A stretch of DNA of 37,085 nt from Candidatus Acidulodesulfobacterium acidiphilum (GTDB taxonomy: Bacteria > SZUA-79 > Acidulodesulfobacterales > Acidulodesulfobacteraceae), in NCBI GenBank assembly GCA_008534395.1, contig SHMQ01000020.1, forward strand, positions 1-37,085, given 5' to 3'. Below are positions 1,436-19,048 of the stretch, piece by piece (positions within the stretch are counted from its first letter, which is position 1; the number at the start of each line of letters is the position of its first letter). A program made the position numbers and the translations under genes. The notes beneath the pieces were generated by a model, which did no database searches, was not told the origin of the DNA, and was given only the letters and a program-made list of their open reading frames with translations.

Positions 1436-2602
1436 TCAAACTGATAAACCTAAATGGTCTGCGCTATTCATTATTTCTTTATAATCGCAATTTAAGTCTT
1501 CGGCGATTGTTCTTATACTTTCCTTGAATTTTAAATTTCTAATTTCTCTTCTGTAATTGTGGTCTTTGAATTGGTCTTTTAAAGACTGTTCGGGATTGAT
1601 TATTATCATGCGTTTGTAATTTTTAGCATGTTCATCTATATACTCCCTTATAGAATCATCGCTTTCCGGGAAAGAATATCCTATTATATAGATATAATCA
1701 GCCGAACTTATTTCTTTTTTTACTCTATCATGAATAATTTGAAGCTTTTCATAATTCTTGCTTTTAGCAGGAGGAATAATAAACGGTTCTTCATCGCAGA
1801 AAACGGGATTAGACAAGGATGTGGCTCTGCAATAAGGACACTCATGTTTATTCAATAAATTACGCATTTCTAAATTAATATTTCCTTCTTTCCACGGACT
1901 TACACCCCATCTTTCGCTGAGAGCTTTACTTATTTGACGAGACATGAAATATTTTTGTCCATGCTCGGTAAACGTTACAGGTGAAATTCCGCCGCATTTA
2001 TTGCATAAAGCCCAATTTAATGAGCCGTGTGGTTTAAGTAATGGTATTTGCGAATAACTCTTATCGAAACAATATCCATAGGGCAAACGCAAAAGATTTA
2101 ATGCGTAATCCAACGAAATATCATAATTGAAAGTAATCAGGGATATGTTATACGCTGTTTTAATTTTATCTAATAATGTTGCAAATAAACCATAAGGTTT
2201 TGGCGGTTGATTATATTTTAATTCATTTCTTACGGATTGCGGAAAGATGATAGATTGCGCGAGAGTTTCTAAAATTAAATTTTTTAAAGAAAATAAAATT
2301 GATTTTTTATCATCAATCGAAATAGGCAAATCTTCTATAAATTGGATTTCTTCTAATATCGAAAAAACCGATTCGATATTATTCCAATCAATTTCCTTAT
2401 TTAATTTTTCCTCTATTCTCCCATTTCTGAGGGTATCAATAGCACTAAAGACCCTTTCAAAATCATTTTTATTTTTCAAATCAACTTTCTTGTCAAAAAT
2501 AATTTCTTTTGCTTTATCAAGGAAGTTGCCCATTAAAGGCGCTCCTCCCTCCGCAGACGCTCCCGCTCCAAGGATAAATAATATTTTTTCCATATTCTTC
2601 AT
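1436..2602 (-). CDS. SIR2-like NAD-binding protein, probable defence effector
   Basis: A 388-residue protein with the hallmarks of the SIR2-like superfamily: a glycine-rich NAD-binding loop GAGAS at residues 12-16, the TFNYD motif at 157-161, and PHGSLNW with the expected catalytic histidine at 192. Two Cys pairs (C200/C203 and C255/C258) form a likely zinc ribbon, and GYSFPESD at 308-315 resembles the terminal Rossmann strand of the family. SIR2-like proteins in defence islands commonly degrade NAD+ to abort phage infection (family knowledge). Whether this one hydrolyses NAD+ or deacylates proteins cannot be read from sequence. It is a stand-alone gene. The start is either residue 1 or the Met four codons in (2593); both have weak ribosome binding sites. 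Confidence 0.8.
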   Translation of the reverse strand: MKNMEKILFILGAGASAEGGAPLMGNFLDKAKEIIFDKKVDLKNKNDFERVFSAIDTLRNGRIEEKLNKEIDWNNIESVFSILEEIQFIEDLPISIDDKKSILFSLKNLILETLAQSIIFPQSVRNELKYNQPPKPYGLFATLLDKIKTAYNISLITFNYDISLDYALNLLRLPYGYCFDKSYSQIPLLKPHGSLNWALCNKCGGISPVTFTEHGQKYFMSRQISKALSERWGVSPWKEGNINLEMRNLLNKHECPYCRATSLSNPVFCDEEPFIIPPAKSKNYEKLQIIHDRVKKEISSADYIYIIGYSFPESDDSIREYIDEHAKNYKRMIIINPEQSLKDQFKDHNYRREIRNLKFKESIRTIAEDLNCDYKEIMNSADHLGLSV

Positions 2603-3600: not shown

Positions 3601-4476
3601 ATGACTAAAATAGAATATAAGATAAATCGGGAATTAAGAGAGATAGAGCATTTTCATAAAATGGACGCGCCGTTATCGGTTGTTTCAAATAAAACAGACC
3701 ATGACATAAGGCAGGACATGCGCCGCATAGCTCATGACGCCAGGCATTACGATATAGGCGTAACCGCCAACAGGAAAGCCGACATCGGCAAATGGAGTAA
3801 CGCCGATATCGAAAAAATGGTAAATTATTATAAGGCTCAGGGTCTAAAAGACGCTACTATTATCAACTATGTTTCTTCCTTAAGGTCTTTTTTGCATGAA
3901 ACAGGCAGAACGAATATTAATATTTCCAACGGAGAACTTGGACTTAAAAGAGAAATTGAATATAAGGACAAAAGCCTCGCCGCCAAAGGAGTGGATATAA
4001 AAGAAAAGCTCCGGTATTTTAAAGAAAAGGACGCCAACGTTTACGTTCAGTTGAAAATTGCGAGTATAGCGGGCTTAAGGAAAGAAGAAAGCGTCCACGC
4101 CGGACTTGCGCTTTCAAAAGGTTATGAAATAGTAAAAAACGGCACTCTTGAATTAAAAGGCTCTTGGTGCAAAAACGGCAGACCCAGAGAAATAAAACTT
4201 TCTTCGAAGAAACTTAAAGAACTTGCGGAACTTCGTAAATTCGCGATGAACTGCAATTACGATACCGGCAGGAACTTAAAGCAGGAAATGAACCATCTGG
4301 GAAATTCCATTAAAAATGCAGGCTTCAATATGCACGCCATAAGGCACGCTGTGGCACAGGAAAGATATGCGGAATTAATTGTGGAAGGGAAGTCGGATAA
4401 GGAAGCCAGGCAGGTCGTTTCCAACGAACTCGGACACGGTAGAATTTATGTGACGAAGATTTATCTGGGGAAGTAG
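3601..4476 (+). CDS. Tyrosine recombinase, Integrase_1-like
   Basis: A 291-residue site-specific recombinase. An N-terminal SAM-like core-binding domain (about residues 60-100, with ATIINYVSSLRSFLHET) is followed by a catalytic domain with the tyrosine-recombinase residues: Arg in AGLRKEES, HAIRH (HxxR box), and ELGHGR with the terminal tyrosine in VTKIYLG. The set is complete, so the enzyme is probably active. It breaks and rejoins DNA through a 3'-phosphotyrosine. The start is firm: GGAGG lies 8 nt before the ATG. It is only distantly related to the integrase at 17987-19048, so the island carries two independent recombinases. The hairpin-rich 1 kb upstream may contain its target or regulatory sites. 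Confidence 0.85.
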   Translation: MTKIEYKINRELREIEHFHKMDAPLSVVSNKTDHDIRQDMRRIAHDARHYDIGVTANRKADIGKWSNADIEKMVNYYKAQGLKDATIINYVSSLRSFLHETGRTNINISNGELGLKREIEYKDKSLAAKGVDIKEKLRYFKEKDANVYVQLKIASIAGLRKEESVHAGLALSKGYEIVKNGTLELKGSWCKNGRPREIKLSSKKLKELAELRKFAMNCNYDTGRNLKQEMNHLGNSIKNAGFNMHAIRHAVAQERYAELIVEGKSDKEARQVVSNELGHGRIYVTKIYLGK

Positions 4477-4602: not shown

Positions 4603-5541
4603 ATGGAAAAGACTTTATCAAAATTAAATAAAGTAGAATTGCGCTCTGTTTGGGGGCATGAAGCGATTGATTTTACAAGCTGGCTTGCCAGACAGGAAAA
4701 TCTTGATATATTGAGTGAAGAAATCGGGGTTAACATAAAGCTTATCGAAAAAGAAGCAAATGTTGGAAAATTCAGCGTTGATATTCTTGCCGAAGAAGAA
4801 TCCTTAGATAGAAAGATAATAATTGAGAATCAACTTGAAGCCACAAACCATGATCATTTGGGAAAAATTATCACCTATGCGTCAGGATATGACGCTAAAA
4901 TAATAATATGGATCGTTAAAGATGTACGCGAAGAACATCAAAAAGCAATTGAGTGGTTAAATGAACATACTGATGAAAACATCAGTTTTTTCTTAATAAA
5001 AATTGAACTTTGGCAGATTAACAACTCTAATCCTGCGCCAAAGTTTGAAATTATAGTCAGCCCTAATGAATGGGCAAAAACATTTAAAACAAGCCCGTCA
5101 AATAGGGATTTTACAGATACTAAACTTAAACAACTAGCATTTTGGGACAAATTCAAAAGTTTTGTTCAAGGAAAAAATGATAGTATTCGCTTACAAACTC
5201 CGAAACCTCAACACTGGTATGTTATTAGCATAGGAAGCTCGGAAGCCAATATTGTTTTAACTATCAACTCACGCGAAAATTTACTTGTTTGCGTTATTAG
5301 CATAAACAAAAATAAAGATTTATTTGATTTTTTAAAAAAAAAGAAGGATGAAATCGAAAAAGAAATTGGTGAATCCACCACATGGAGAGATGACCTCGCT
5401 TATCCCCAAATTTTTATCGAAAAAAATGTACCAGGTATATTTAATATAGAGAAAACCGAAGAATATTTTGAATGGTTTTATGAGAAAACGCTTTTATTTC
5501 AAAAAGTGTTTAGGAAATATATTAAAGAATTTAAAAAATAA
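4603..5541 (+). CDS. DUF4268 protein with PD-(D/E)XK nuclease-like N-terminus
   Basis: A 312-residue two-part protein. Residues about 40-110 form a restriction-endonuclease-like fold: D60 in GKFSVDILAE, then IIIENQ with E75 and Q77 replacing the usual ExK. Downstream, HLGKIITYASGYDAKIIIWI is typical of this nuclease group. The C-terminal half (from about 155, FWDKFKSFV ... EWFYEK) matches my memory of DUF4268. It is the first gene of a co-directional run with an AAA+ ATPase, Mod and Res, suggesting a DNA-targeting role. The Gln in place of Lys occurs in some nucleases of the superfamily but could lower activity. No Shine-Dalgarno is visible. Confidence 0.75.
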   Translation: MEKTLSKLNKVELRSVWGHEAIDFTSWLARQENLDILSEEIGVNIKLIEKEANVGKFSVDILAEEESLDRKIIIENQLEATNHDHLGKIITYASGYDAKIIIWIVKDVREEHQKAIEWLNEHTDENISFFLIKIELWQINNSNPAPKFEIIVSPNEWAKTFKTSPSNRDFTDTKLKQLAFWDKFKSFVQGKNDSIRLQTPKPQHWYVISIGSSEANIVLTINSRENLLVCVISINKNKDLFDFLKKKKDEIEKEIGESTTWRDDLAYPQIFIEKNVPGIFNIEKTEEYFEWFYEKTLLFQKVFRKYIKEFKK

Positions 5542-5646: not shown

Positions 5647-6888
5647 ATGAATAAAGTAAATCCATTTACCCCAAATAGTCCTATTAACAGAGGTACATTT
5701 GCTGGCCGTTATGAAGAAATTGAGGCTATTGATAAGGGTTTATATCAAGCTAACAATGGAAACCCGACGCACATACTTCTGGTTGGAGAAAGAGGTATTG
5801 GGAAAACCTCCTTGCTTTATGTTAGTGAAATTTTTGCCAAAGGGGAACTTAATTGGTCAGGGGGAAAGCATAATTTTTTGGTTGTAAGACTTAACTTAAA
5901 TGATAAAATTGGTTTAGTCGATTTTGCAATAATTTTAGCAAAAGCTATTAAAAGGCAGATAGACATAGAACATCCTACCCTTACTTTTGTAAAAAAAGCT
6001 TTGGAAATTCTTAGCAGACTTGAGGTTCAAGGATTAAGTTATAAAAAAGAAAAATCTAGTATTTCAAATGAGGAAGAATTTATTCAAGATTTTATTTATT
6101 CAATTGCAGATACTATTAAATCAATAAGAGACCCAAAATCTTCAACAGAAAGCAAGGATGGGTTAGTAATTCTTATAGACGAAGCGGATAAGGCTTCAAA
6201 AGAACTCAATCTCGGTTCTTTTTTGAAAAATTTATCGGAAAATCTTGTTGCAGAGAACGCAAATCATATTCTTTTTATAGTATCTGGTCTTCCTGGAATG
6301 AGAAAAATGCTTACTGATAGCCATGAGTCATCTCTTCGTCTTTTTGAAGAGCATTATCTTGGGCCATTGTCAAAAGAAGATACTAAAAAGGTTATAAAAC
6401 AAGGATTAGATGATAATATAGAAAAAAATTCAAAAGAAAATATAAAAATAAACGATGATGCTCAAGAAGCTATTTATGTTTTTTCAGAAGGGTACCCACA
6501 TTTCGTCCAACAAATTGGATATTCAGTTTTTGAAGAGAATAATGATGATGTAATTTCAATAGAGGATTTTAATAAGAGTTATGCTAAAGCCCTTATTCAA
6601 ATAGGAAGCAGATTTTATTATAAACCTTTTTATCAAGATATAACAGCCGAAACACAACGACAAATATTACGAATAATGGCCGAAAAATGGAATGGTTGGA
6701 TAACACGTGGTGAAATAAAAAATAAATTTCAAGGCAAAGAAACAGCTTTGACTAATGGCTTAAAAGCTCTTAGGGACAAAGCTATTATAATTTCTAAAGA
6801 AGGTGTTAAGGGAGAGTATCGCTTACAATGGGCAAGTTTTGCTCTTTGGATAAAATTGCAAGGAGGAACCGATGAAGATTCCTTGTAG
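5647..6888 (+). CDS. AAA+ ATPase with C-terminal winged helix (AAA_16/Orc1-Cdc6-like)
   Basis: A 413-residue ATPase. The N-terminus (NPFTPNSPINRGTFAGR) is the typical lead-in of this family; Walker A is GERGIGKTSL (about 47-56) and Walker B is LVILIDEADKA (about 173-183). A sensor-like segment IVSGLPGMRK follows. The last about 75 residues (TAETQRQILRIMAEK ... GWITRGEIKNKF ... GEYRLQWASFALWI) form a winged-helix domain, so DNA-bound ATP hydrolysis is likely. It is 106 nt after the DUF4268 nuclease gene and 182 nt before mod, all co-directional. Pairing of an ATPase with a nuclease is common in defence, but a link to the Mod/Res pair is inference. Confidence 0.8.
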   Translation: MNKVNPFTPNSPINRGTFAGRYEEIEAIDKGLYQANNGNPTHILLVGERGIGKTSLLYVSEIFAKGELNWSGGKHNFLVVRLNLNDKIGLVDFAIILAKAIKRQIDIEHPTLTFVKKALEILSRLEVQGLSYKKEKSSISNEEEFIQDFIYSIADTIKSIRDPKSSTESKDGLVILIDEADKASKELNLGSFLKNLSENLVAENANHILFIVSGLPGMRKMLTDSHESSLRLFEEHYLGPLSKEDTKKVIKQGLDDNIEKNSKENIKINDDAQEAIYVFSEGYPHFVQQIGYSVFEENNDDVISIEDFNKSYAKALIQIGSRFYYKPFYQDITAETQRQILRIMAEKWNGWITRGEIKNKFQGKETALTNGLKALRDKAIIISKEGVKGEYRLQWASFALWIKLQGGTDEDSL

Positions 6889-7069: not shown

Positions 7070-9310
7070 ATGAAATTGGCAGAATCTGAAAAACGGGAAA
7101 TAGTGCAGTTTATAGAAAAAGATAAACCCCTTCCCGATAAATACCGGTTTTTACTCTTTGATGATAAGCGCGAAGTAGAACTTGTCTGGAATGGAAAAAC
7201 TGAAGATGTATCAAATATAGTTCTGCCGTTTCAGGTTATAGAGCAGATTGATGAACCCCGCCCGGAAAAGCCTGAAGATACCAAATCTCAATTATTCCTG
7301 TTTGACGAACGCGGACGCCAAAAATCCGGCTGGACGAATAAGCTTATATGGGGCGATAACAAGCTTATTCTTTCCAGTTTGAAAAACGGTCCTATGCGAG
7401 ATGAAATTGAACAAGCCGGCGGTGTTAAACTTATTTATATTGACCCTCCTTTTGATGTCGGCGCCGATTTTTCCATGGATATAGAAATAGGAGAGGAAAC
7501 ATTCACAAAAAAGCCGAGCGTTTTGGAGGAGCTTGCATACCGAGATACCTGGGGCAAAGGAGCGGATAGTTTTATAGCCATGATTTACGAAAGACTTGTT
7601 TTAATGCGTGATTTATTGGCGGAAGACGGAAGTATTTATGTACATTGCGATTGGCGGGTGAATAGTTATATTAGATTAGTTTTAAATGAAATTTTTGGTA
7701 ATAATTCTTTTAGGAATCAAATATCTTGGCAAAGATTTGGAGCACATAACGACGCACATAGATTTGGCAATGTTACAGATACTTTATTATTTTGTTCAAA
7801 ATCTGATCAATATACCTTTAATCCACAATATATTGGTTATTCGGAAGAGTATATTAAGGAACGATTTATTAAGGACGATGTTACTGGCAAGCTTTTTTAC
7901 CCACATACATTTACTGGTAAAGGTCAAGGTCCAGCCAGAAGATTTAGGACTGGAATTTTAAATCCACCTAAAGGCAGGCATTGGTCACGAACTCAAGAAA
8001 AAATAGACGAACTAGATAAGCAAAATCTGATTTATTATACGGCAAATGGAACACCATATCTAAAAAGTTTTCTTGATGATTATAAGGGGCGACTAATTCA
8101 GGATATTTGGACAGATATAGTTATGACAAAGAGTGGCAAGGAGTTAGTTGATTACCCTACTCAAAAACCTGAAGCCCTTCTTGAGCGTATAATTAAAGCC
8201 TCATCCAACGAAAACGACATCGTTGCCGACTTCTTCTGCGGCTCTGGCACCACTCTTGCTGTGGCCGAAAAACTTGGTCGAAAATGGATAGGTTCCGACC
8301 TCGGCAAGTTTGCGATACACACAACCCGTAAAAGAATGATTCAGGTTCAACGGGAACTAAAAGCTGGCGGAAAAGATTTTCGCGCTTTTGAAATATTAAA
8401 TATCGGCAAATATGAAAGAGCGCATTACATCGGCGTTAATATGAACCTTCGTGAGGAAGAACGCCAAAAACAGCTAGAGCAAAAAGAAAAAGATTTTGTA
8501 TTGCTTATACTTAAGGCCTATAAATCGGAAACGGTTGAAAACTTTAAATGTTTTCAGGGCAAAAAGGCAGGTAGATTTGTTACGGTCGGACCGATAAATC
8601 TTCCGGTAACACGCCTTTTCGTCGAAGAAGTCATACTTGAGTGTCAGGAAAAGAGAATTTCGCGCATAGATATCCTTGCCTTTGAATTTGAAATGGGGTT
8701 ATTTCCGCGTATTCAAGAAGAAGCAAGGGCTAAAGGAATTGATTTAGCGCTTAAATATATACCCAGAGATGTTTTCGATAAAAGGGCAATAGAGAAAAAT
8801 CAGGTTGTATTTTACGATGTAAATTACATAGAAGTAAAACCGCACGTAAAAAATAATCAGATAACTATTGAATTAACAGATTTTTCAGTCCATTATTCTC
8901 AGGATACGGTAGATAATGCGGCATCATCGCTTTCAAACGGCAAAAGTAAAATTGTTGTCGAAAACGGCAGGATTATTAAGATAAATAAGGATAAAGACGG
9001 CATTATAACTAAAGAAATACTTACTGAGAATTGGACTGACTGGATTGATTACTGGAGCGTTGATTTCAATTTTGAATCTCGGCGTGAAATTATAAAAGTT
9101 AAGAACTTCGATACAGGTAAAATTGAAGAAAAATGGACGGGCGATTATATCTTCGAAAACGAATGGCAGTCTTTTAGGACTAAGAAGAACAGGTCATTAG
9201 AACTTATAACGCCTTATCATGACTGCAATAATGGGAGGCATAAGATTGCAGTCAAAGTTGTCGATATATTCGGAAACGATACTATGAAGGTATTTGAGGT
9301 TTCCGTCTGA
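7070..9310 (+). CDS. mod: Type III-like DNA methyltransferase (Mod)
   Basis: A 746-residue beta-class amino-methyltransferase: catalytic motif IV DPPF (125-128, in LIYIDPPFD) precedes the AdoMet-binding motif [10 protein letters not shown] (387-395), the order expected for type III Mod. The region between (about 207-360) would be the target-recognition domain. A long C-terminal extension (about 470-746) includes [12 protein letters not shown] and [12 protein letters not shown], which I associate with large Mod proteins paired with helicase-type Res. It should methylate adenine (or N4-cytosine) in an asymmetric site and form a complex with the Res 38 nt downstream. Base usage changes inside the recognition region (see findings). 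Confidence 0.9.
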
Positions 9311-9347
9311 ATTATATAACCGAAATAGATTTATAAAGGAATAAAAA

Positions 9348-12032
9348 ATGGCAATTCATACTAATTTTTCAAAATCTCCGTATGACGTTCTATATCCTGA
9401 ATACAGATGGTTTCCTGCTGATGAGTCTTTAAGGGATACAAGTTACGAGAAGCTTTTGCCGCCGCTTGTTTCTAAAATTAGAAAAGAAGTTAAAGACTGG
9501 CGCGATGACCTCTATGCCGGTGCAAGTGCAACTTCAAAGTCCTTATTAGAATGGTGGTTTAATACAGCGCATATTATAGAAAAATCAGGCGACGATACGG
9601 CCGAGTTTAAATATTACTTTGCCCAAAGAGAAGCTATAGAAACCATTATTTATTTATACGAAGTTGCAAAAGTTAAAGATAAATACGACCTTTTAAAATA
9701 TGATTCTTCGAAAGCGGTTTCTACCGGAATGTTTGATGAAGACTGGCTTAGATTAGTTATAAAAATGGCTACCGGAAGCGGCAAAACTAAAGTAATGAGC
9801 CTTATAGTTACCTGGTGCTATTTCCACAAGCTATACGAAGAAGACTCTAAACTATCGACCAACTTTCTTATAATTGCCCCAAATATAATAGTCTTAGATA
9901 GGCTGCGCGCCGATTTTGACGGATTAAAAATATTCTGGAACGACCCCCTTTTGCCGAATAACGGTTTTGGAGGTCAAAACTGGCAGGATGATTTTCAACT
10001 TACGCTTCATATTCAGGATAACGTTTCTGTCGTTCGCAAAACCGGAAATATTTTCTTGACTAATATTCATAGAGTATATAGCGGAAACGATACCGACCCG
10101 AGCTTTAATGATGAAAACCTCGACGACTATTTTCTTGGAAAAAGACCCGTAGGCAAAACGAACGATTCAAAAGTGGATTTAGGAATTATAGTCAGGGAAA
10201 TTGACGAATTAATAGTAATTAACGATGAAGCCCATCATATTCACGACAGCCGTCTTGCATGGTTTAAATCGATAGAAGATATCCATAACCGTTTAAAACA
10301 AAAAGGACATTTCCTTTCATTGCAGATGGATGTTACGGCAACGCCTAAGCACAATAACGGGGCTATTTTCGTACAAACCGTAGTTGACTATCCGCTGGTG
10401 GAAGCTATTTACCAGGATGTCGTAAAGCATCCTGTTTTACCTGATTCAGCAAGTCGGGCAAAACTTTCCGAAAAGAAAAGTTCAAAATATACCGAAAAAT
10501 ATTCAGATTATATAGCCTTGGGAATAGAAGAATGGCGCAAAGCATATATAGAACATGAAAAGCTCGGCAAAAAAGCCATTCTTTTCATTATGACGGATGA
10601 CACAATAAACTGCGACGATGTTGCCGACTATCTTGAAAACAGGTATTCAGACCTTAAAGGTGCTGTTTTAGTAATACACACTAAAAATAACGGTGAAATT
10701 GCCGAACATGACACAGGAAAGAGCAAAGAAGAACTAGATAGATTGAGAAATGCTGCAAACGAAATAGATAGCTTCGAAAGCCCTTATAAAGTCATAGTTT
10801 CCGTCCTTGTTTTAAAAGAAGGCTGGGATGTCCGCAATGTCACCACTATAGTAGGGCTTCGTGCCTATGCCGCAAAAAGCAATATTCTGCCGGAACAGAC
10901 CTTAGGAAGAGGTTTAAGAAGGATGTATCCCGGCACTGACGCCACGGAATATGTGAGCGTCATTGGAACCGACGCATTTATGGAATTTGTAGAATCTATC
11001 CAGACTGAAGGCGTCGAACTTACGCGAAAACCGATGGGGTCGGGCACGGAACCAAAAGCTCCGATAATTATAGAAGTGGATAATGACAATGTAAAAAAAG
11101 ATATAGATAAGCTTAATATAGAAATACCAGTCCTGTCTCCAAGAATTTACAGGGAATATAAGCAATTAGAAGACTTAAATCCGTCTATTTTCGGAAATAA
11201 GCGGATTGAATACAAGCAATTCAGCGAAGAAGAAAAACGTGAAATAGTTTTTAAAGAAATAACTTCCGGAGAAATAAACCATACTATAATACTTAGTTCT
11301 GATTTAATTGCCGATTATAGAAACGCAATAGGCTATTTTACGCAGGTTATTATGCACGAATTAAGGTTAATAAGCGGATATGACGTTCTATACGGGAAGG
11401 TGAAAGAATTTATTTCAAGATATCTGTTCGACAGGCAGGTAGAAATTGACGATTTAAACACATTAAGAAACTTGTCTGAACTTGAAGCAACAAAAACAAT
11501 AGTCCAGACTTTTATTAAAAAGATAAACGATTTAACAATTCTAGATAAGGGTAGTGCAGAAATTAGGGATTATATAAAACTAAGACAAACAAGGCCGTTT
11601 GTCGTTAAAGACCAGGGCTTCATAATGCCGCAAAAGAGTCTTTTTAATAAAATTATCGGCGACAGCCATCTCGAACTGCTTTTTGCCTCATTTTTAGAAA
11701 GATGCCCGGATACCGTTTCTTATGTAAAAAATTATTTGGCGGTGCATTTCAAAATAGATTATGTTAATGCAAACGGTAATATTTCCGATTATTACCCGGA
11801 TTTCATCGTAAAAACTGATGAGAAGCATATTTATATTGTAGAAACCAAAGGACTTGAAGACCTCGATACTCCGTTAAAAATGGCACGCCTAAAGCAATGG
11901 TGCGAAGATATAAATATTTCTCAGCATAAAGTAGTTTTCGATTATATTTTTGTTGATGAGGAAGGTTTTAATAAATACAAGCCGGATTCATTTGGGGAAT
12001 TATTAACCGTCTTTGTAAAATATAAAGAATAA
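9348..12032 (+). CDS. res: Type III-like restriction subunit (Res), DEAD/DEAH helicase-nuclease
   Basis: An 894-residue SF2 helicase fused to a nuclease. Walker A is ATGSGKTK (about 140-147), the DEAH box lies in VINDEAHHIHD (about 291-301), and motif VI is QTLGRGLRRMYP (about 516-527, preceded by LKEGWDVRNVT). The C-terminus has a PD-(D/E)XK nuclease: YYPDFIVK (D near 817) and IYIVETKG (E-x-K near 831-833). Together with Mod it would translocate or diffuse on DNA and cleave unmodified targets (family knowledge). The start has AAAGGA 7 nt upstream. All core motifs are intact, so the system is probably functional. The next gene starts 2 nt after its stop, implying translational coupling. Confidence 0.9.
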   Translation: MAIHTNFSKSPYDVLYPEYRWFPADESLRDTSYEKLLPPLVSKIRKEVKDWRDDLYAGASATSKSLLEWWFNTAHIIEKSGDDTAEFKYYFAQREAIETIIYLYEVAKVKDKYDLLKYDSSKAVSTGMFDEDWLRLVIKMATGSGKTKVMSLIVTWCYFHKLYEEDSKLSTNFLIIAPNIIVLDRLRADFDGLKIFWNDPLLPNNGFGGQNWQDDFQLTLHIQDNVSVVRKTGNIFLTNIHRVYSGNDTDPSFNDENLDDYFLGKRPVGKTNDSKVDLGIIVREIDELIVINDEAHHIHDSRLAWFKSIEDIHNRLKQKGHFLSLQMDVTATPKHNNGAIFVQTVVDYPLVEAIYQDVVKHPVLPDSASRAKLSEKKSSKYTEKYSDYIALGIEEWRKAYIEHEKLGKKAILFIMTDDTINCDDVADYLENRYSDLKGAVLVIHTKNNGEIAEHDTGKSKEELDRLRNAANEIDSFESPYKVIVSVLVLKEGWDVRNVTTIVGLRAYAAKSNILPEQTLGRGLRRMYPGTDATEYVSVIGTDAFMEFVESIQTEGVELTRKPMGSGTEPKAPIIIEVDNDNVKKDIDKLNIEIPVLSPRIYREYKQLEDLNPSIFGNKRIEYKQFSEEEKREIVFKEITSGEINHTIILSSDLIADYRNAIGYFTQVIMHELRLISGYDVLYGKVKEFISRYLFDRQVEIDDLNTLRNLSELEATKTIVQTFIKKINDLTILDKGSAEIRDYIKLRQTRPFVVKDQGFIMPQKSLFNKIIGDSHLELLFASFLERCPDTVSYVKNYLAVHFKIDYVNANGNISDYYPDFIVKTDEKHIYIVETKGLEDLDTPLKMARLKQWCEDINISQHKVVFDYIFVDEEGFNKYKPDSFGELLTVFVKYKE

Positions 12033-12034
12033 AT

Positions 12035-12853
12035 ATGAATTTAAACAAAAAATACAATAAGTCGGAACGCAGAAAAGGACTCATTGTTTTTATTGATGCA
12101 CTTGGGACCAAATCTGTCTGGAATAGGGAAGATCCTCTTAAATATTTAAAATCTTGGAAAGGTATTATAAAATCTTTAAGAAATGAAAAAAAATTTATTT
12201 CTAGGGTTTTTAAAGAAGTTTGTTTGATTGATAAGGAAGAAAATATGCCAAAATTAGATATTGCTTCTTTCTCAGATACAATAATTCTAACCTTATCTTT
12301 CTCATTAGATATAATCAATAAAAACGAAATTAATTATAAAGAACATTCGCGTGAGATGTTGATATTTTTAGGTAGTGCTTTAAAGGAAAATTTTTATAAA
12401 ACTATTATGCAAGACAAAATATTTTTACGTGGCGTTGTTAGTTATGGAGATTTTTATAAAATGGACTCATTCCTTATAGGGCCTGCGATAGATGAAGCAG
12501 CTATGTGGTATGATAAAGCTGAGTGGTTTGGTATATCTGCAACACCAAGTGCAAAATATTTTATTGAAGGCACAGATATTGCCAAAGAAGGCGATATTTT
12601 TATAAGGTATCAAATACCTATGAAAGACGGAAAAACAACTGATAGCTACGTTATTTCATGGCCATACTTTGCTTCTTTGAGCACAAAGATTCTCGAAAAT
12701 ATTGATGACATATATTATGAGTCAAGAACCCAGCTATTAGAGTCTTTTTGTTCTAATAAAGTAATAGATAAATCTTCATACCTAAAATATGATAACACAT
12801 TAAAATTTTTTGACGATATTTATAAAATTTTCTGTCGGAGATTAAAGGATTAG
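12035..12853 (+). CDS. Nucleotide-cyclase-like protein coupled to res
   Basis: A 272-residue soluble protein resembling class III nucleotidyl cyclases and the cyclases of Pycsar-type signalling. LIVFIDALGTKS (about 16-27) and ASFSDTIIL (about 77-85) supply two aspartates in the positions that bind metal. LRGVVSYGDFY and GPAIDEAAMWYDKA follow the later strand-helix pattern. The usual transition-state Asn and Arg appear replaced (D and M/W), so catalysis is uncertain. Its ATG is 2 nt after the res stop with only a weak AAAGA upstream, pointing to translational coupling. It could make a nucleotide signal, bind one, or be a degenerate scaffold. The assignment rests on motif pattern only. Confidence 0.5.
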   Translation: MNLNKKYNKSERRKGLIVFIDALGTKSVWNREDPLKYLKSWKGIIKSLRNEKKFISRVFKEVCLIDKEENMPKLDIASFSDTIILTLSFSLDIINKNEINYKEHSREMLIFLGSALKENFYKTIMQDKIFLRGVVSYGDFYKMDSFLIGPAIDEAAMWYDKAEWFGISATPSAKYFIEGTDIAKEGDIFIRYQIPMKDGKTTDSYVISWPYFASLSTKILENIDDIYYESRTQLLESFCSNKVIDKSSYLKYDNTLKFFDDIYKIFCRRLKD

Positions 12854-13612: not shown

Positions 13613-13905
13613 TTATCGGCTTTTATTTTCTTGCCAGTTTTCGAAGACGTCATTTACGGCTTTTTTAATGTCTCCGGCACTAAATGACTATACCTTTTCG
13701 TCATCTGAGTCGTCCTGTGTCCTAGAAGTTTCCCTGTTATATAAAGCGACGTTCCGTTCATTGTCATCTTGCTTTGCGAATACGTGGCGCACAAGTTGTG
13801 GATATGTAAGTCCATGATTCTCATTTTTGCAGACCATATGAAAGTAACGCTTAAAATCCGCCAATTTAGCCCCGTTTCTATTAAAGACATACACAAAATG
13901 CACCT
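13613..13905 (-). pseudogene. Decayed tyrosine-integrase 3' fragment
   Basis: Read on the minus strand, this stretch encodes in shifting frames the last about 95 residues of a tyrosine integrase: VFNRNGAKL, then the decayed HDLRHVFA region, then GTSLYITG and LLGHRTTQMTKRYSHLVPETLKK. The same segment occurs intact in the integrase at 17987-19048 in the same orientation, clearly similar but not identical at DNA level. At least three frameshifts are needed to follow it, including one after PETLKK that breaks the tail VNDVFENWQENK. It is a relic of an earlier related element rather than a fresh duplication. Confidence 0.8.
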
Positions 13906-14107: not shown

Positions 14108-15241
14108 TTAACACCCCAGCGACAACATTAATTCATTAAATTTTTTATTAAATAGCCCATATCTATCTGAATCTACATCTTTTAAATAACTTATTAAGCC
14201 TAATAGATGATTAATAAGCCCAAAAGTTGAATTAAAACCTAAATGTTTTGCCGTATTTTCAAACTTAAACCGGTTTACATAGTAAAAAATCTTTTCAATT
14301 CTTTTATACATTTCTTTAGAAATTCTTGGCTGATTACCATCAACCAACAACCCTAAAACAATCTTTTTTGCACCAGGTCCTGCAATTCTAATTTTATTAG
14401 AATTCTCTTTAAAACAATTTTTTCTAATTATTTGAATTATTTGCCATCGTATTTTCCCTATAGACATACCTTGAGGTAAATTTATTGCCGAAAAAGTTAG
14501 ATCATCAGCATAACGAGTATAAATAAACCCGTTTTTTAATGCAAAAACATAAAGATCTTCGTCTAATTCCATTGCAGCTAAATTGCTTAGCATAGGACTT
14601 GTTGGAGAACCTTGCGGAAGAACGCCTATAAAATCATTATTGTAAAACGGGTAATCATCAAGAGAAAATGATTTAAATTGTTTAAGCATGCTTTGTAGTT
14701 GTCTTGGCAAACGTATTGTTGTACATAAACGAGCAAGTTCAAAGGATAACAACTTCCTATATCCCATTCTTTGAAAGATATTATAAACGTCTATCTCGTT
14801 TATGCGATAGAAAAAATCAGCAAGGTCAAATTGAAATAACCATTTAGCGTTGCAGTGCATAGCAGCGCATTTTTTAATTCCGCCGGAAGGATGATAAGCA
14901 TAAGAACAATTATGAGGTTGTTGGGATTGAAGAATAATATTATTAATAAATGTCTGCACTATTGATAGTTTTTTGGAAACGGCATGAATAAATCTTGTGC
15001 CACCAGAACGCTTTTTAATAGGGAACATCCTGTAATTGACATATTCTCTTTCTCTACATACAGTTTTGTATAAAAAACTGTATTCGGTATTAGTTATAAT
15101 TCCTAAGTGATTTAGCGTGAATATAACGGGAAGGCTTTGAATTTTTAAATTTGTAGTATACTTTTGTAAATCATTAGCTTTTTCGCTTCCAAGTTTAATT
15201 ATCGCATTTTCTTTAAGTTGGTGTGTTGACCAGTCTTCCAC
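14108..15241 (-). CDS. Retron reverse transcriptase
   Basis: A 377-residue RT of retron size. Motifs: FDLADFF (138-144) with the first catalytic Asp, PQGSPTSP (209-216), and the catalytic box YADD (244-247). The retron region-X motif NAxxH appears as CAAMH (125-129), and the region-Y VTG appears as VLG in IVLGLLVDG (about 294-302). The enzyme would prime from the 2'-OH of a guanosine in its own RNA and copy the msd (family knowledge). The start is GTG at 15241, chosen because AAGGAG sits 6 nt upstream. The first eight codons are also the a2 repeat of the RNA. It is the last gene of the retron operon; the IS21 relic begins just after its stop. Confidence 0.93.
   Translation of the reverse strand: MEDWSTHQLKENAIIKLGSEKANDLQKYTTNLKIQSLPVIFTLNHLGIITNTEYSFLYKTVCREREYVNYRMFPIKKRSGGTRFIHAVSKKLSIVQTFINNIILQSQQPHNCSYAYHPSGGIKKCAAMHCNAKWLFQFDLADFFYRINEIDVYNIFQRMGYRKLLSFELARLCTTIRLPRQLQSMLKQFKSFSLDDYPFYNNDFIGVLPQGSPTSPMLSNLAAMELDEDLYVFALKNGFIYTRYADDLTFSAINLPQGMSIGKIRWQIIQIIRKNCFKENSNKIRIAGPGAKKIVLGLLVDGNQPRISKEMYKRIEKIFYYVNRFKFENTAKHLGFNSTFGLINHLLGLISYLKDVDSDRYGLFNKKFNELMLSLGC
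15218..15240 (-). repeat. Retron a2 repeat
   Basis: This is the complement of a1, with core TGGAAGACTGG. It covers nearly all of the RT start codon and the following codons (EDWSTHQ), so pairing with a1 would occlude RT translation initiation. Confidence 0.9.
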
Positions 15242-15435: not shown

Positions 15436-16665
15436 TTAGGCAAACGGCTGAATGGAAGACTGGTCAGCACACCAAGATTTAGGAATATATAACGAATAGT
15501 CATAATTAAAATCTTCATTAATGTTTTGAGCATGTAGGAAATTTTTCCCGCTTTTTGTCAAAAAATGTTTTTGCGTTATTAAACCTGTACATATTGCTTT
15601 ATTCAATAATTCATTGATTATTTTTATATCTAAGTCCATACGTAATGATAAACTAGTTTTATTTCTAACCCCACGCTTAATAAGAAGAATTAACTGTAAC
15701 ATTTCGTTATTAATCATTTGATTATTGAAGGATTTAGATTTATTTTTTTTAATAATTGATTGGATTACTGGTTTATTGGTGCTCTTTTTAGGTTTATTGT
15801 TAAGCATCTCAATTATTTCAATAGGAATGGTTCTATTAGGAAATAAAGGCAACCAATGATTTTTTTTACAAAACAACATCCCTGGAATATTGTTAGGAAC
15901 GCTATGCTCAAAAATTATATTGCTCATAACCTTTCCAAAACCACGCCTATAATTTTCTGGTATATCTGTCTTTGAATCGCAAAGCTTCAATATGTGTTCA
16001 TATTCCGCACCCCAGCGCTTACTTAAGAATTTATTAGTATATATTATAGGACTATTAAAATTAATTTTCTCTGATTTTTTATACTTTCTTTTGTGGTGAT
16101 TAGAACCTGGTAGCGAATCCAATATTATTTTTTCAGATTCGATTGTCCTGGCAAAAGAAAGAATATATAGTTTAATTATCCCGTAGCTCCACCAACTTTT
16201 AAGTGTTTTTTGATTTATAAATTTTCTTATATAAGTTGAAGCCCGTTTCCCGCTTCCAATGGCGTCATCAATAAGTACAATGTTATTTATTTTTTCTTTT
16301 TTTAATTTATCAATAGATGGATGGTCAAAGAAATTATTATTATTATTTATTAATGAAATCACAAAGTCTTCACTGCCTAATTTCTCTGCCGGGCGATTGA
16401 TTATGTCCCCATTTCCTTCCCAAAGTTCTTCTGTAGCTTCCATTTTTCTAATTGCATAAAATGCAAACTTTTCATTTCCTTGAAGAAAAGGATAGATGTT
16501 TTTATTAAACCAAGTTGAATAGCTATCACGTGAGATGAATTTTAAATGGGTCAAGATGGAAATAGCGGTAGGACGTTCATAATCTTTAAATTGTTTTAAC
16601 CATGCTAATATATTACTAGACTCCTCTATCATTTGATTAGATATTTTCTTTATAGCTATGTCCAT
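15436..16665 (-). CDS. Retron effector: phosphoribosyltransferase-like domain plus winged helix
   Basis: A 409-residue protein. The centre holds a PRTase-type PRPP loop, IVLIDDAIGSGKRAS (129-143). The downstream segment (YRRGFGKVMSNIIFEH, then VPNNIPGMLF, then WLPLFPNR; about 239-279) resembles the PRTase-CE domain of defence proteins. Residues about 322-378 (LILLIKRGVRNKTSLS ... GLITQKHFLTKSGKNFL) look like a winged helix. PRTase plus winged-helix proteins are, as I recall, the effectors of type III retrons, where the retron RNA/cDNA is thought to restrain the toxin until infection. The ATG at 16665 has GGAG about 11 nt upstream. It lies 27 nt after the nuclease-like gene, and its final codons form a1. 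The enzymatic reaction is unknown. Confidence 0.82.
   Translation of the reverse strand: MDIAIKKISNQMIEESSNILAWLKQFKDYERPTAISILTHLKFISRDSYSTWFNKNIYPFLQGNEKFAFYAIRKMEATEELWEGNGDIINRPAEKLGSEDFVISLINNNNNFFDHPSIDKLKKEKINNIVLIDDAIGSGKRASTYIRKFINQKTLKSWWSYGIIKLYILSFARTIESEKIILDSLPGSNHHKRKYKKSEKINFNSPIIYTNKFLSKRWGAEYEHILKLCDSKTDIPENYRRGFGKVMSNIIFEHSVPNNIPGMLFCKKNHWLPLFPNRTIPIEIIEMLNNKPKKSTNKPVIQSIIKKNKSKSFNNQMINNEMLQLILLIKRGVRNKTSLSLRMDLDIKIINELLNKAICTGLITQKHFLTKSGKNFLHAQNINEDFNYDYSLYIPKSWCADQSSIQPFA
15453..15475 (-). repeat. Retron a1 repeat
   Basis: This 23-nt segment pairs with a2 at 22 of 23 positions (one C-A mismatch); its core is CCAGTCTTCCA. It lies wholly inside the effector reading frame, encoding residues S397 to I405, so effector mRNA and retron RNA share sequence. 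Confidence 0.9.
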
Positions 16666-17986: not shown

Positions 17987-19048
17987 TCATTGACTTTCCA
18001 TGTTATCTTTACTCCAAATGTCGTTAACCGCTTTTTTAAGTGTTTCAGGCACTAAATGACTATACCTTTTTGTCATCTGCGTCGTCCTGTGTCCTAAGAG
18101 TTCCCCAGTAATATATAACGATGTTCCGCCCATTACCATCTTGCTTGCAAAGACGTGTCTTAAATCGTGGATACGCAAATCTTTTAGTCCTGCCTTTTTA
18201 CAGGCGGTATGAAAAGAACGCTTAAAATCGGTCAATTTTGCTCCGTTTCTATTAAAGACATACAAACTATCCTGATTCTTTTCGATACCGCTTAAAACCG
18301 CTTTTAACGGTTCAGAAATCGGAATATACCGGTCATATTTTGTTTTCGTTCCTTTAATTGCAATAACGCCGGTTTTTAAATCCACGTCGTCCCATTTTAA
18401 ATTCAAGGCCTCGCCTTTCCGACAGCCGGTATAAATTAAAAAAGTTATTAAATCCCTGGTTAATTTATTCGTTGCGCCTGAAATTAGTTTTTGAATGTCT
18501 TCATCGGAAAGAGTTTTAATTCGCGATAAAGTATTTAATTTTCTTATACCGGCGGCAGGATTTTTATCAATAAGATTTTTTTCTATGCAGAAGTTGAAAA
18601 AATTATGCAATATCTGCAATTCATGGTTTAAGCTTTTAAAACTTATTTCGGATTCTCTTTTATCTTTGTTCTTAGGATTGTTTATTATTTCTAGTCTTCT
18701 TTGAAGTTGATAATTTTTTAAGTCGAGCGTATTAATATCTTCAACGGGTTTATTTTGAAATACAGGCAAAAAATGCTTGGCTCTTGATATAGTGCTTGTC
18801 AGTGTATTTTTTGCATTGGTTGATTTTTTAATATATTCCTGCCAGAGTATAGTAAAATTTACTATACTTTTATTTCTTAAAGCAGGTAAATCATATGTTT
18901 CGCGTGCAAGGTCGGTTTGTATAGATTCGGCAATTTGCTTAGCCGACTGTTTATCGGTGGTTTTTGTACTGCCTTGATATTTTTTACCGTTATAGGTTAT
19001 GCAATAATACCAGTTTTTAGAATTTTTAAGCATGTAAATGCTTGCCAT
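17987..19048 (-). CDS. int: Phage-type tyrosine integrase
   Basis: A 353-residue integrase with three parts: an N-terminal beta-rich arm-binding domain (YYCITYNGKKYQGSTKT, about 13-30), a SAM-like core-binding domain (about 62-165), and a catalytic domain with Arg in TGCRKGEAL, HDLRH (HxxR), LLGHRTTQMTKRY with the terminal His and nucleophilic Tyr. All catalytic residues are present. It should integrate and excise the island at tRNA-fMet, whose 3' end lies 137 nt upstream of its start. A decayed copy of its 3' end lies at 13613-13905. Context makes the tRNA target likely but not proven. Confidence 0.92.
   Translation of the reverse strand: MASIYMLKNSKNWYYCITYNGKKYQGSTKTTDKQSAKQIAESIQTDLARETYDLPALRNKSIVNFTILWQEYIKKSTNAKNTLTSTISRAKHFLPVFQNKPVEDINTLDLKNYQLQRRLEIINNPKNKDKRESEISFKSLNHELQILHNFFNFCIEKNLIDKNPAAGIRKLNTLSRIKTLSDEDIQKLISGATNKLTRDLITFLIYTGCRKGEALNLKWDDVDLKTGVIAIKGTKTKYDRYIPISEPLKAVLSGIEKNQDSLYVFNRNGAKLTDFKRSFHTACKKAGLKDLRIHDLRHVFASKMVMGGTSLYITGELLGHRTTQMTKRYSHLVPETLKKAVNDIWSKDNMESQ

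What the first reader, a model, noticed from the sequence alone, without database searches (positions are those of the whole stretch)
12035..12853. Nucleotide-cyclase-like gene translationally coupled to a type III Res
The start is 2 nt after the res stop. FIDALG and FSDTII resemble the two metal-binding aspartate strands of class III cyclases, and GPAIDEA resembles the later helix, though the transition-state Asn/Arg look replaced. A signalling domain tied to a restriction enzyme would suggest a back-up abortive response when restriction is engaged.
Basis: partly seen in the sequence, partly recalled or inferred. Interest (0 to 1): 0.6.

Follow-up and report, generated by a model that had tools for sequence, protein, structure and literature searches.

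The report
Cyclase-fold gene attached to restriction systems
A bacterial gene sitting directly behind a DNA-restriction enzyme gene encodes a distant, unannotated relative of the enzymes that make cyclic-nucleotide signals, and its relatives sit repeatedly beside very different restriction systems, which hints at (but does not prove) a signalling arm added to restriction.

Summary
Window 12035-12853 is a real 272-aa gene starting 2 nt after the res stop of a type III mod-res operon. No Pfam, NCBIfam, PADLOC or PDB sequence model recognises it, but a confident AlphaFold model (pLDDT 90.7) matches only class III nucleotide cyclases among the top 50 PDB folds. Both metal-binding Asp are kept in 54/54 aligned homologues. 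The tie to restriction is recurrent: within the host phylum, every copy found lies beside restriction genes (type III, type I, two type II systems; one with only a weak REase-like gene). Elsewhere 4 of 36 loci lie in type I, type II or BREX operons. A second clade is coupled to a conserved upstream partner. It is not obligate: a relative carries the same mod-res (97% nt) without the cyclase, homology ending 39 nt before the res stop. So it is exchangeable cargo. No cyclic-nucleotide-binding effector is nearby, so Pycsar membership fails. Best reading: a new, probably catalytic, class III-like cyclase lineage acting as an accessory to restriction. Signal, effector and abortive outcome are inferred only.

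The parts
12035..12853 (+). Divergent class III nucleotide-cyclase-fold gene (272 aa)
   Evidence: ORF; AF2 pLDDT 90.7, pTM 0.89; Foldseek PDB top 50 all class III cyclases, E down to 2e-6, probability 1.00; family members
12095..12097 (+). Codon of D21, first metal-binding Asp (FIDALG)
   Evidence: Invariant 54/54; aligns with FxDIxGF of canonical cyclases
12275..12277 (+). Codon of D81, second metal-binding Asp (FSDTII)
   Evidence: Invariant 54/54; aligns with the GD hairpin of canonical cyclases
12428..12430 (+). Codon of R132 in the RG(A/V)xSxG strand
   Evidence: 52/54 Arg, remainder Lys
12479..12508 (+). GPAIDEAAMW, place of the canonical G-D-x-V-N-x-A-x-R helix; Asn and Arg replaced
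   Evidence: hhalign with canonical cyclases, HMMER alignment to 5o5k and 1yk9, column counts
12785..12787 (+). Codon of K251 in the C-terminal KYxNTLxF helix
   Evidence: 51/54 Lys; role unknown
9348..12032 (+). res, type III restriction subunit
   Evidence: PF04851 1e-15, PADLOC REase_III 7e-21; Walker A, DEAH and PD..ETK motifs visible in the translation; 97% aa identity to the Res of L139, which has no cyclase
7070..9310 (+). mod, type III methyltransferase
   Evidence: PF01555 7e-45, PADLOC MTase_III 5e-116
11994..12032 (+). Last 13 codons of res, beyond the point where homology to the cyclase-free mod-res island stops
   Evidence: blastn window 8147-11993 vs L139 6136-9982, 97.1%
5647..6888 (+). 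AAA ATPase upstream of mod (possible accessory)
   Evidence: PF13191 5e-10; absent from the L139 island
4603..5541 (+). DUF4268 protein, PADLOC candidate PDC-S11
3601..4476 (+). Tyrosine-recombinase-like gene at the island border
   Evidence: 76% aa identity to the recombinase beside the type I RM-cyclase locus L013; 91% nt to L139
12913..13593 (-). Convergent one-TM, helical protein; possible but unproven effector
   Evidence: 26% identity, E 2e-10, to the protein directly downstream of the cyclase in L092/L006; no Pfam family

Best explanation
The gene encodes a divergent class III nucleotide cyclase of an unannotated family that is carried as an exchangeable accessory of restriction modules. 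SHOWN by computation: the class III cyclase fold, the invariant two-metal Asp pair, the loss of the usual transition-state Asn/Arg, the repeated neighbourhood of restriction/BREX genes, and an RM core that exists without the gene. INFERRED: it binds NTP with two metals as a head-to-tail dimer, uses other conserved residues (R132, K251) for phosphate and transition-state contacts, and releases a nucleotide product when restriction is engaged or fails, which triggers a second, cell-level response. The receptor is not a CNBD protein nearby; the adjacent one-TM protein is only a candidate. Step confidences: cyclase fold 0.97; functional link with restriction 0.75; catalytic rather than dead 0.55; nucleotide-signal back-up arm 0.35.
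For: Fold: pLDDT 90.7 model and only class III cyclases in the PDB top 50. Active site: D21 and D81 invariant in 54/54 sequences from many bacterial phyla and two contigs labelled archaeal, many only 20-30% identical to the window protein. Restriction link: window type III; L013 cyc-hsdM-hsdS-hsdR; L018 hsdM..hsdS-partner-cyc..hsdR; L099 hsdS-partner-cyc..hsdR; L025 C5-MTase then cyc; L012/L093 N6 MTase and putative nuclease then cyc; L094 MTase beside a cyclase remnant; L098 pglZ-brxL-partner-cyc-gajA-gajB. The window clade (support 0.995) contains type III, I and II neighbours, so the cyclase has kept company with restriction while the RM type changed. Precedent for cNMP cyclase domains in conflict systems, including with NaeI-type REase: PMC7159879; for class III-related cyclases in phage defence: PMC11224242.
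Against: Canonical transition-state residues are missing, so activity may be absent or different. No CNBD protein is within the locus, and G026, which carries two copies, has none detected in a 78%-complete genome. A near-identical mod-res has no cyclase. Outside the host phylum most loci (32 of 36) have no RM gene detected within 3 kb. Several copies are broken (L092, L094, L033, L035).
Confidence: 0.42

Rival explanations
1. A catalytically dead or altered cyclase fold that binds a nucleotide and regulates the restriction machinery, or competes for a nucleotide, without making a second messenger.
For: Transition-state Asn/Arg are replaced throughout the subfamily; no CNBD receptor nearby; inactive cNMP cyclase domains are proposed as nucleotide binders or dominant-negative regulators in other conflict systems (PMC7159879).
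Against: The two metal Asp never vary in 54 sequences, which a dead domain would not need; R132, K251 and the glycines are kept too.
Confidence: 0.25
2. An independent accessory or defence gene carried in the same mobile islands, with no functional link to the RM genes next to it.
For: Defence islands cluster unrelated systems; the host genomes are rich in MTases (3 to 18 PF01555 matches each); recombinases flank the window island; most loci elsewhere lack RM; one mod-res lacks the cyclase.
Against: In the phylum every copy found is beside restriction or REase-like genes, for three RM types; in L013, L018, L099 and the window it lies inside or directly abuts the RM operon.
Confidence: 0.22
3. 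A Pycsar system: a pyrimidine cyclase with a TM effector, here the convergent 12913-13593 gene.
For: Class III fold; one-TM neighbour with a homologue downstream of the cyclase in L092.
Against: No PADLOC model matches any of 27 members apart from one stray Csm3; the TM gene has no detectable CNBD and lies on the opposite strand.
Confidence: 0.06

Closest known systems
Class III adenylate/guanylate cyclases (Pfam PF00211; e.g. OaPAC 4yut, sGC 3uvj, Ma1120 4wp9)
   Same: Fold, order of elements, both metal Asp, glycine-rich strand and following helix
   Different: No PF00211 match even at E 1; transition-state Asn/Arg replaced; extra C-terminal KYxNTLxF helix conserved; hhalign probability only 4% although register and E 0.01 agree
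Pycsar PycC (clades A-E; PMC11224242)
   Same: Class III-type fold and two metal Asp in a phage-defence setting
   Different: No PADLOC match, no CNBD-TM or CNBD-TIR effector, tied to restriction genes instead
cNMP cyclase domains of VMAP/vWA conflict systems (Kaur et al. 2020, PMC7159879)
   Same: cNMP cyclase domains used in conflict systems, some said to be inactive, one combined with NaeI REase
   Different: Those are domains in large multidomain proteins of VMAP/vWA systems; here stand-alone genes beside classical RM and BREX operons. I did not compare sequences with them.
Type III restriction-modification (mod-res)
   Same: The upstream mod and res genes are of this kind
   Different: A nucleotide-cyclase fold gene is not a part of type III RM; the same mod-res occurs without it

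Membership tests
Class III nucleotide cyclase | Cyclase homology domain fold | tested here: met
   AF2 + Foldseek
Class III nucleotide cyclase | Two metal-binding Asp | tested here: met
   54/54 sequences
Class III nucleotide cyclase | Transition-state Asn and Arg | tested here: not met
   Asp/Glu and Trp or variable
Class III nucleotide cyclase | Match to PF00211 | tested here: not met
   (E up to 1)
Class III nucleotide cyclase | Makes cNMP from NTP | not testable with these tools
   needs enzyme assay
Class III nucleotide cyclase | Head-to-tail dimer with shared active sites | not tested
   only a monomer was modelled
Pycsar | Match to PADLOC defence models, which I understand to include Pycsar (content not checked) | tested here: not met
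Pycsar | Neighbouring effector with cyclic-nucleotide-binding domain plus TM or TIR | tested here: not met
   neighbour scans; whole-genome PF00027 hits are on other contigs with frames of CRP size
Pycsar | cCMP or cUMP synthesis | not testable with these tools
   needs enzyme assay
Type III RM component | Constant companion of mod-res | tested here: not met
   97%-identical mod-res without the gene; homologues with type I, II and BREX

The most novel reading that the evidence does not exclude
A previously undescribed kind of defence accessory: a non-canonical class III cyclase lineage that plugs into restriction systems of any type (I, II, III, BREX) and produces a nucleotide signal by an altered catalytic site when restriction engages, read by a non-CNBD effector.
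Probability: 0.22. Interest if true: 0.85.

Novelty: new variant of a known kind. Interest (0 to 1): 0.55.

Why it matters
If catalytic, it would join two branches of bacterial immunity usually treated as separate, DNA restriction and nucleotide second-messenger signalling, through one small gene that moves between RM types. It also defines an unannotated protein family (no Pfam or NCBIfam model) that keeps the cyclase metal site without the usual transition-state residues, which is a directly testable catalytic puzzle. The pair of 97%-identical mod-res islands with and without the gene is a ready-made experiment.

Tried and rejected
Single-sequence PDB search: nothing. Profile PDB search: only weak hits, two of them adenylate cyclases at the right helix. 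Single-protein viral and phage searches: nothing. Panoptes/GGDEF/Cas10 kinship rejected because all top 50 PDB folds are class III cyclases. TM gene as a universal partner rejected: the L094 TM protein is not detectably homologous. CNBD-TM neighbour in L034 is a single case with sigma-54 AAA and ferredoxin domains, not a Pycsar effector. The partner protein was modelled but matches only VCH_CASS3, an integron cassette protein. No paper describing this family was found in the open-access library; subscription papers were not searchable.

Full report
OBSERVATION. The ORF at 12035-12853 (+) encodes 272 aa, starting 2 nt after the stop of res. Upstream, on the same strand, lie a recombinase-like gene, DUF4268/PDC-S11, an AAA ATPase, mod and res. 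Downstream, on the other strand, lie a one-TM protein, a partial integrase copy, a type III-A retron (RT and PRTase) and an integrase. The protein has no match in Pfam, NCBIfam or PADLOC at E 1; only an uncharacterised PHROG matches weakly.

FAMILY. Homologues were found in own-phylum genomes, in genome contigs of many bacterial phyla and of two contigs labelled archaeal, in viral contigs and as a TPR fusion in Fusobacterium. The subfamily is rare elsewhere (5/399 Bacillota, 1/399 Pseudomonadota, 3/241 in the phylum of L018 at E 1e-25, counts that include the seed genomes used to reach each phylum) but occurs in 5 of 30 genomes of the host phylum. A broader, weaker set with the pattern FIDILGFK..FSDS..RGG..G is seen in Bacteroidota (16/396 genomes at E 1e-10) and also lacks Pfam and NCBIfam models in the members tested.

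FOLD. AlphaFold2 with 27 homologues gives pLDDT 90.7 and pTM 0.89. All of the 50 best PDB matches are class III nucleotide cyclases (E 2e-6 to 7e-4, probability 1.00, TM normalised by target up to 0.68); the best viral library matches are guanylate-cyclase-like giant virus proteins. Sequence-level comparison is marginal (hhalign E 0.01 for a single comparison, probability 4%) but in the same register: D21 against FxDIxGF, D81 against the GD hairpin, GPAIDEAA against GDxVNxASR.

ACTIVE SITE. In 54 aligned homologues D21 and D81 are invariant, R132 is kept in 52, K251 in 51, and G133, G138 and G149 in all. Where canonical cyclases have Asn and Arg, this subfamily has D/E (positions 153/154) and S/M/variable or W (157/158, depending on a one-residue gap). 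The host genome has no PF00211 match at E 1e-20 and three CNBD matches, all on other contigs and in frames of CRP size.

RESTRICTION LINK. Own phylum: window, type III; G003/L013, cyc-hsdM-hsdS-hsdR; G026/L012 and G023/L093 (near-identical copies), N6 MTase, a putative nuclease, an RHH-like gene, cyc; G026:C160/L094, cyclase remnant beside a DNA MTase and a likely HNH nuclease (judged by eye); G027/L092, split cyclase beside a gene with a sub-threshold BsuBI/PstI match. Elsewhere: L018 and L099, inside type I operons; L025, after a C5 MTase; L098, after pglZ-brxL and before gajA-gajB. Seeds taken from these systems find RM/BREX genes within 3 kb in 8 of 41 distinct subfamily loci: 4 of 5 in the own phylum and 4 of 36 elsewhere. 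In the 5-10 kb flanks only one unconnected hit appears (L028). The seeds come from the positive loci, so recall elsewhere is uncertain, and host genomes are MTase-rich; I treat this as strong for the phylum and suggestive outside it. FastTree puts window, L012 and L013 in one clade (0.995) with three RM types.

PARTNER CLADE. In 11 loci (L018, L027, L030-L033, L036, L040, L098-L100) a protein of about 215 aa directly precedes or overlaps the cyclase. Its C-terminal half resembles the integron cassette protein VCH_CASS3. The window lacks it.

NATURAL EXPERIMENT. Contig G026:C168 (L139) has the same recombinase (91% nt), the same mod-res (97.1% nt over window 8147-11993; Res 97% aa) and a 97.5% identical flank integrase fragment, but no cyclase. 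Homology stops 39 nt before the res stop. So the RM core exists without the cyclase, and the last 13 codons of res plus the cyclase entered as one block (inference). The genes between recombinase and mod differ too, so the island swaps accessory cargo on both sides of mod-res.

MECHANISM. The invariant metal pair argues for NTP chemistry; the missing Asn/Arg argue for altered or lost cyclisation. I favour an active, non-canonical enzyme giving a nucleotide product as a back-up to restriction, at modest confidence. Pycsar is not supported.

VERDICT.

Noticed in passing
window 13654-13896 (-) and 17987-19048 (-): A partial copy of the C-terminal part of the integrase (114 nt at 84% and 70 nt at 86%, spacing 4.37 kb) brackets the type III-A retron block (RT 14108-15241, PRTase 15436-16665), suggesting an integrated cassette.
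   Followed up: partly
window 1436-2602 (-): An ORF that looks by eye SIR2-like (FILGAGASAEGG...) lies at the left end of the same island; not scanned against a library.
   Followed up: no
L094 6316-7482 (-) and 7491-9392 (-): A cyclase with PF00211 match (E 2e-5) that keeps a NINYAK motif, next to a GHKL-type ATPase (by eye), on the contig with the cyclase remnant.
   Followed up: partly
L034 9920-13268: In Thermincola the cyclase homologue is followed 80 nt later by a protein with CNBD, sigma-54 AAA, TM and ferredoxin domains, the only CNBD neighbour seen.
   Followed up: partly
L139 10206-11882: In the cyclase-free mod-res island the downstream slot holds other genes, including a PemK/MazF-like one (by eye).
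   Followed up: no
L039 3873-5668: In a viral contig a two-TM protein resembling (by eye) putative phage abortive infection proteins overlaps the start of a cyclase homologue.
   Followed up: no
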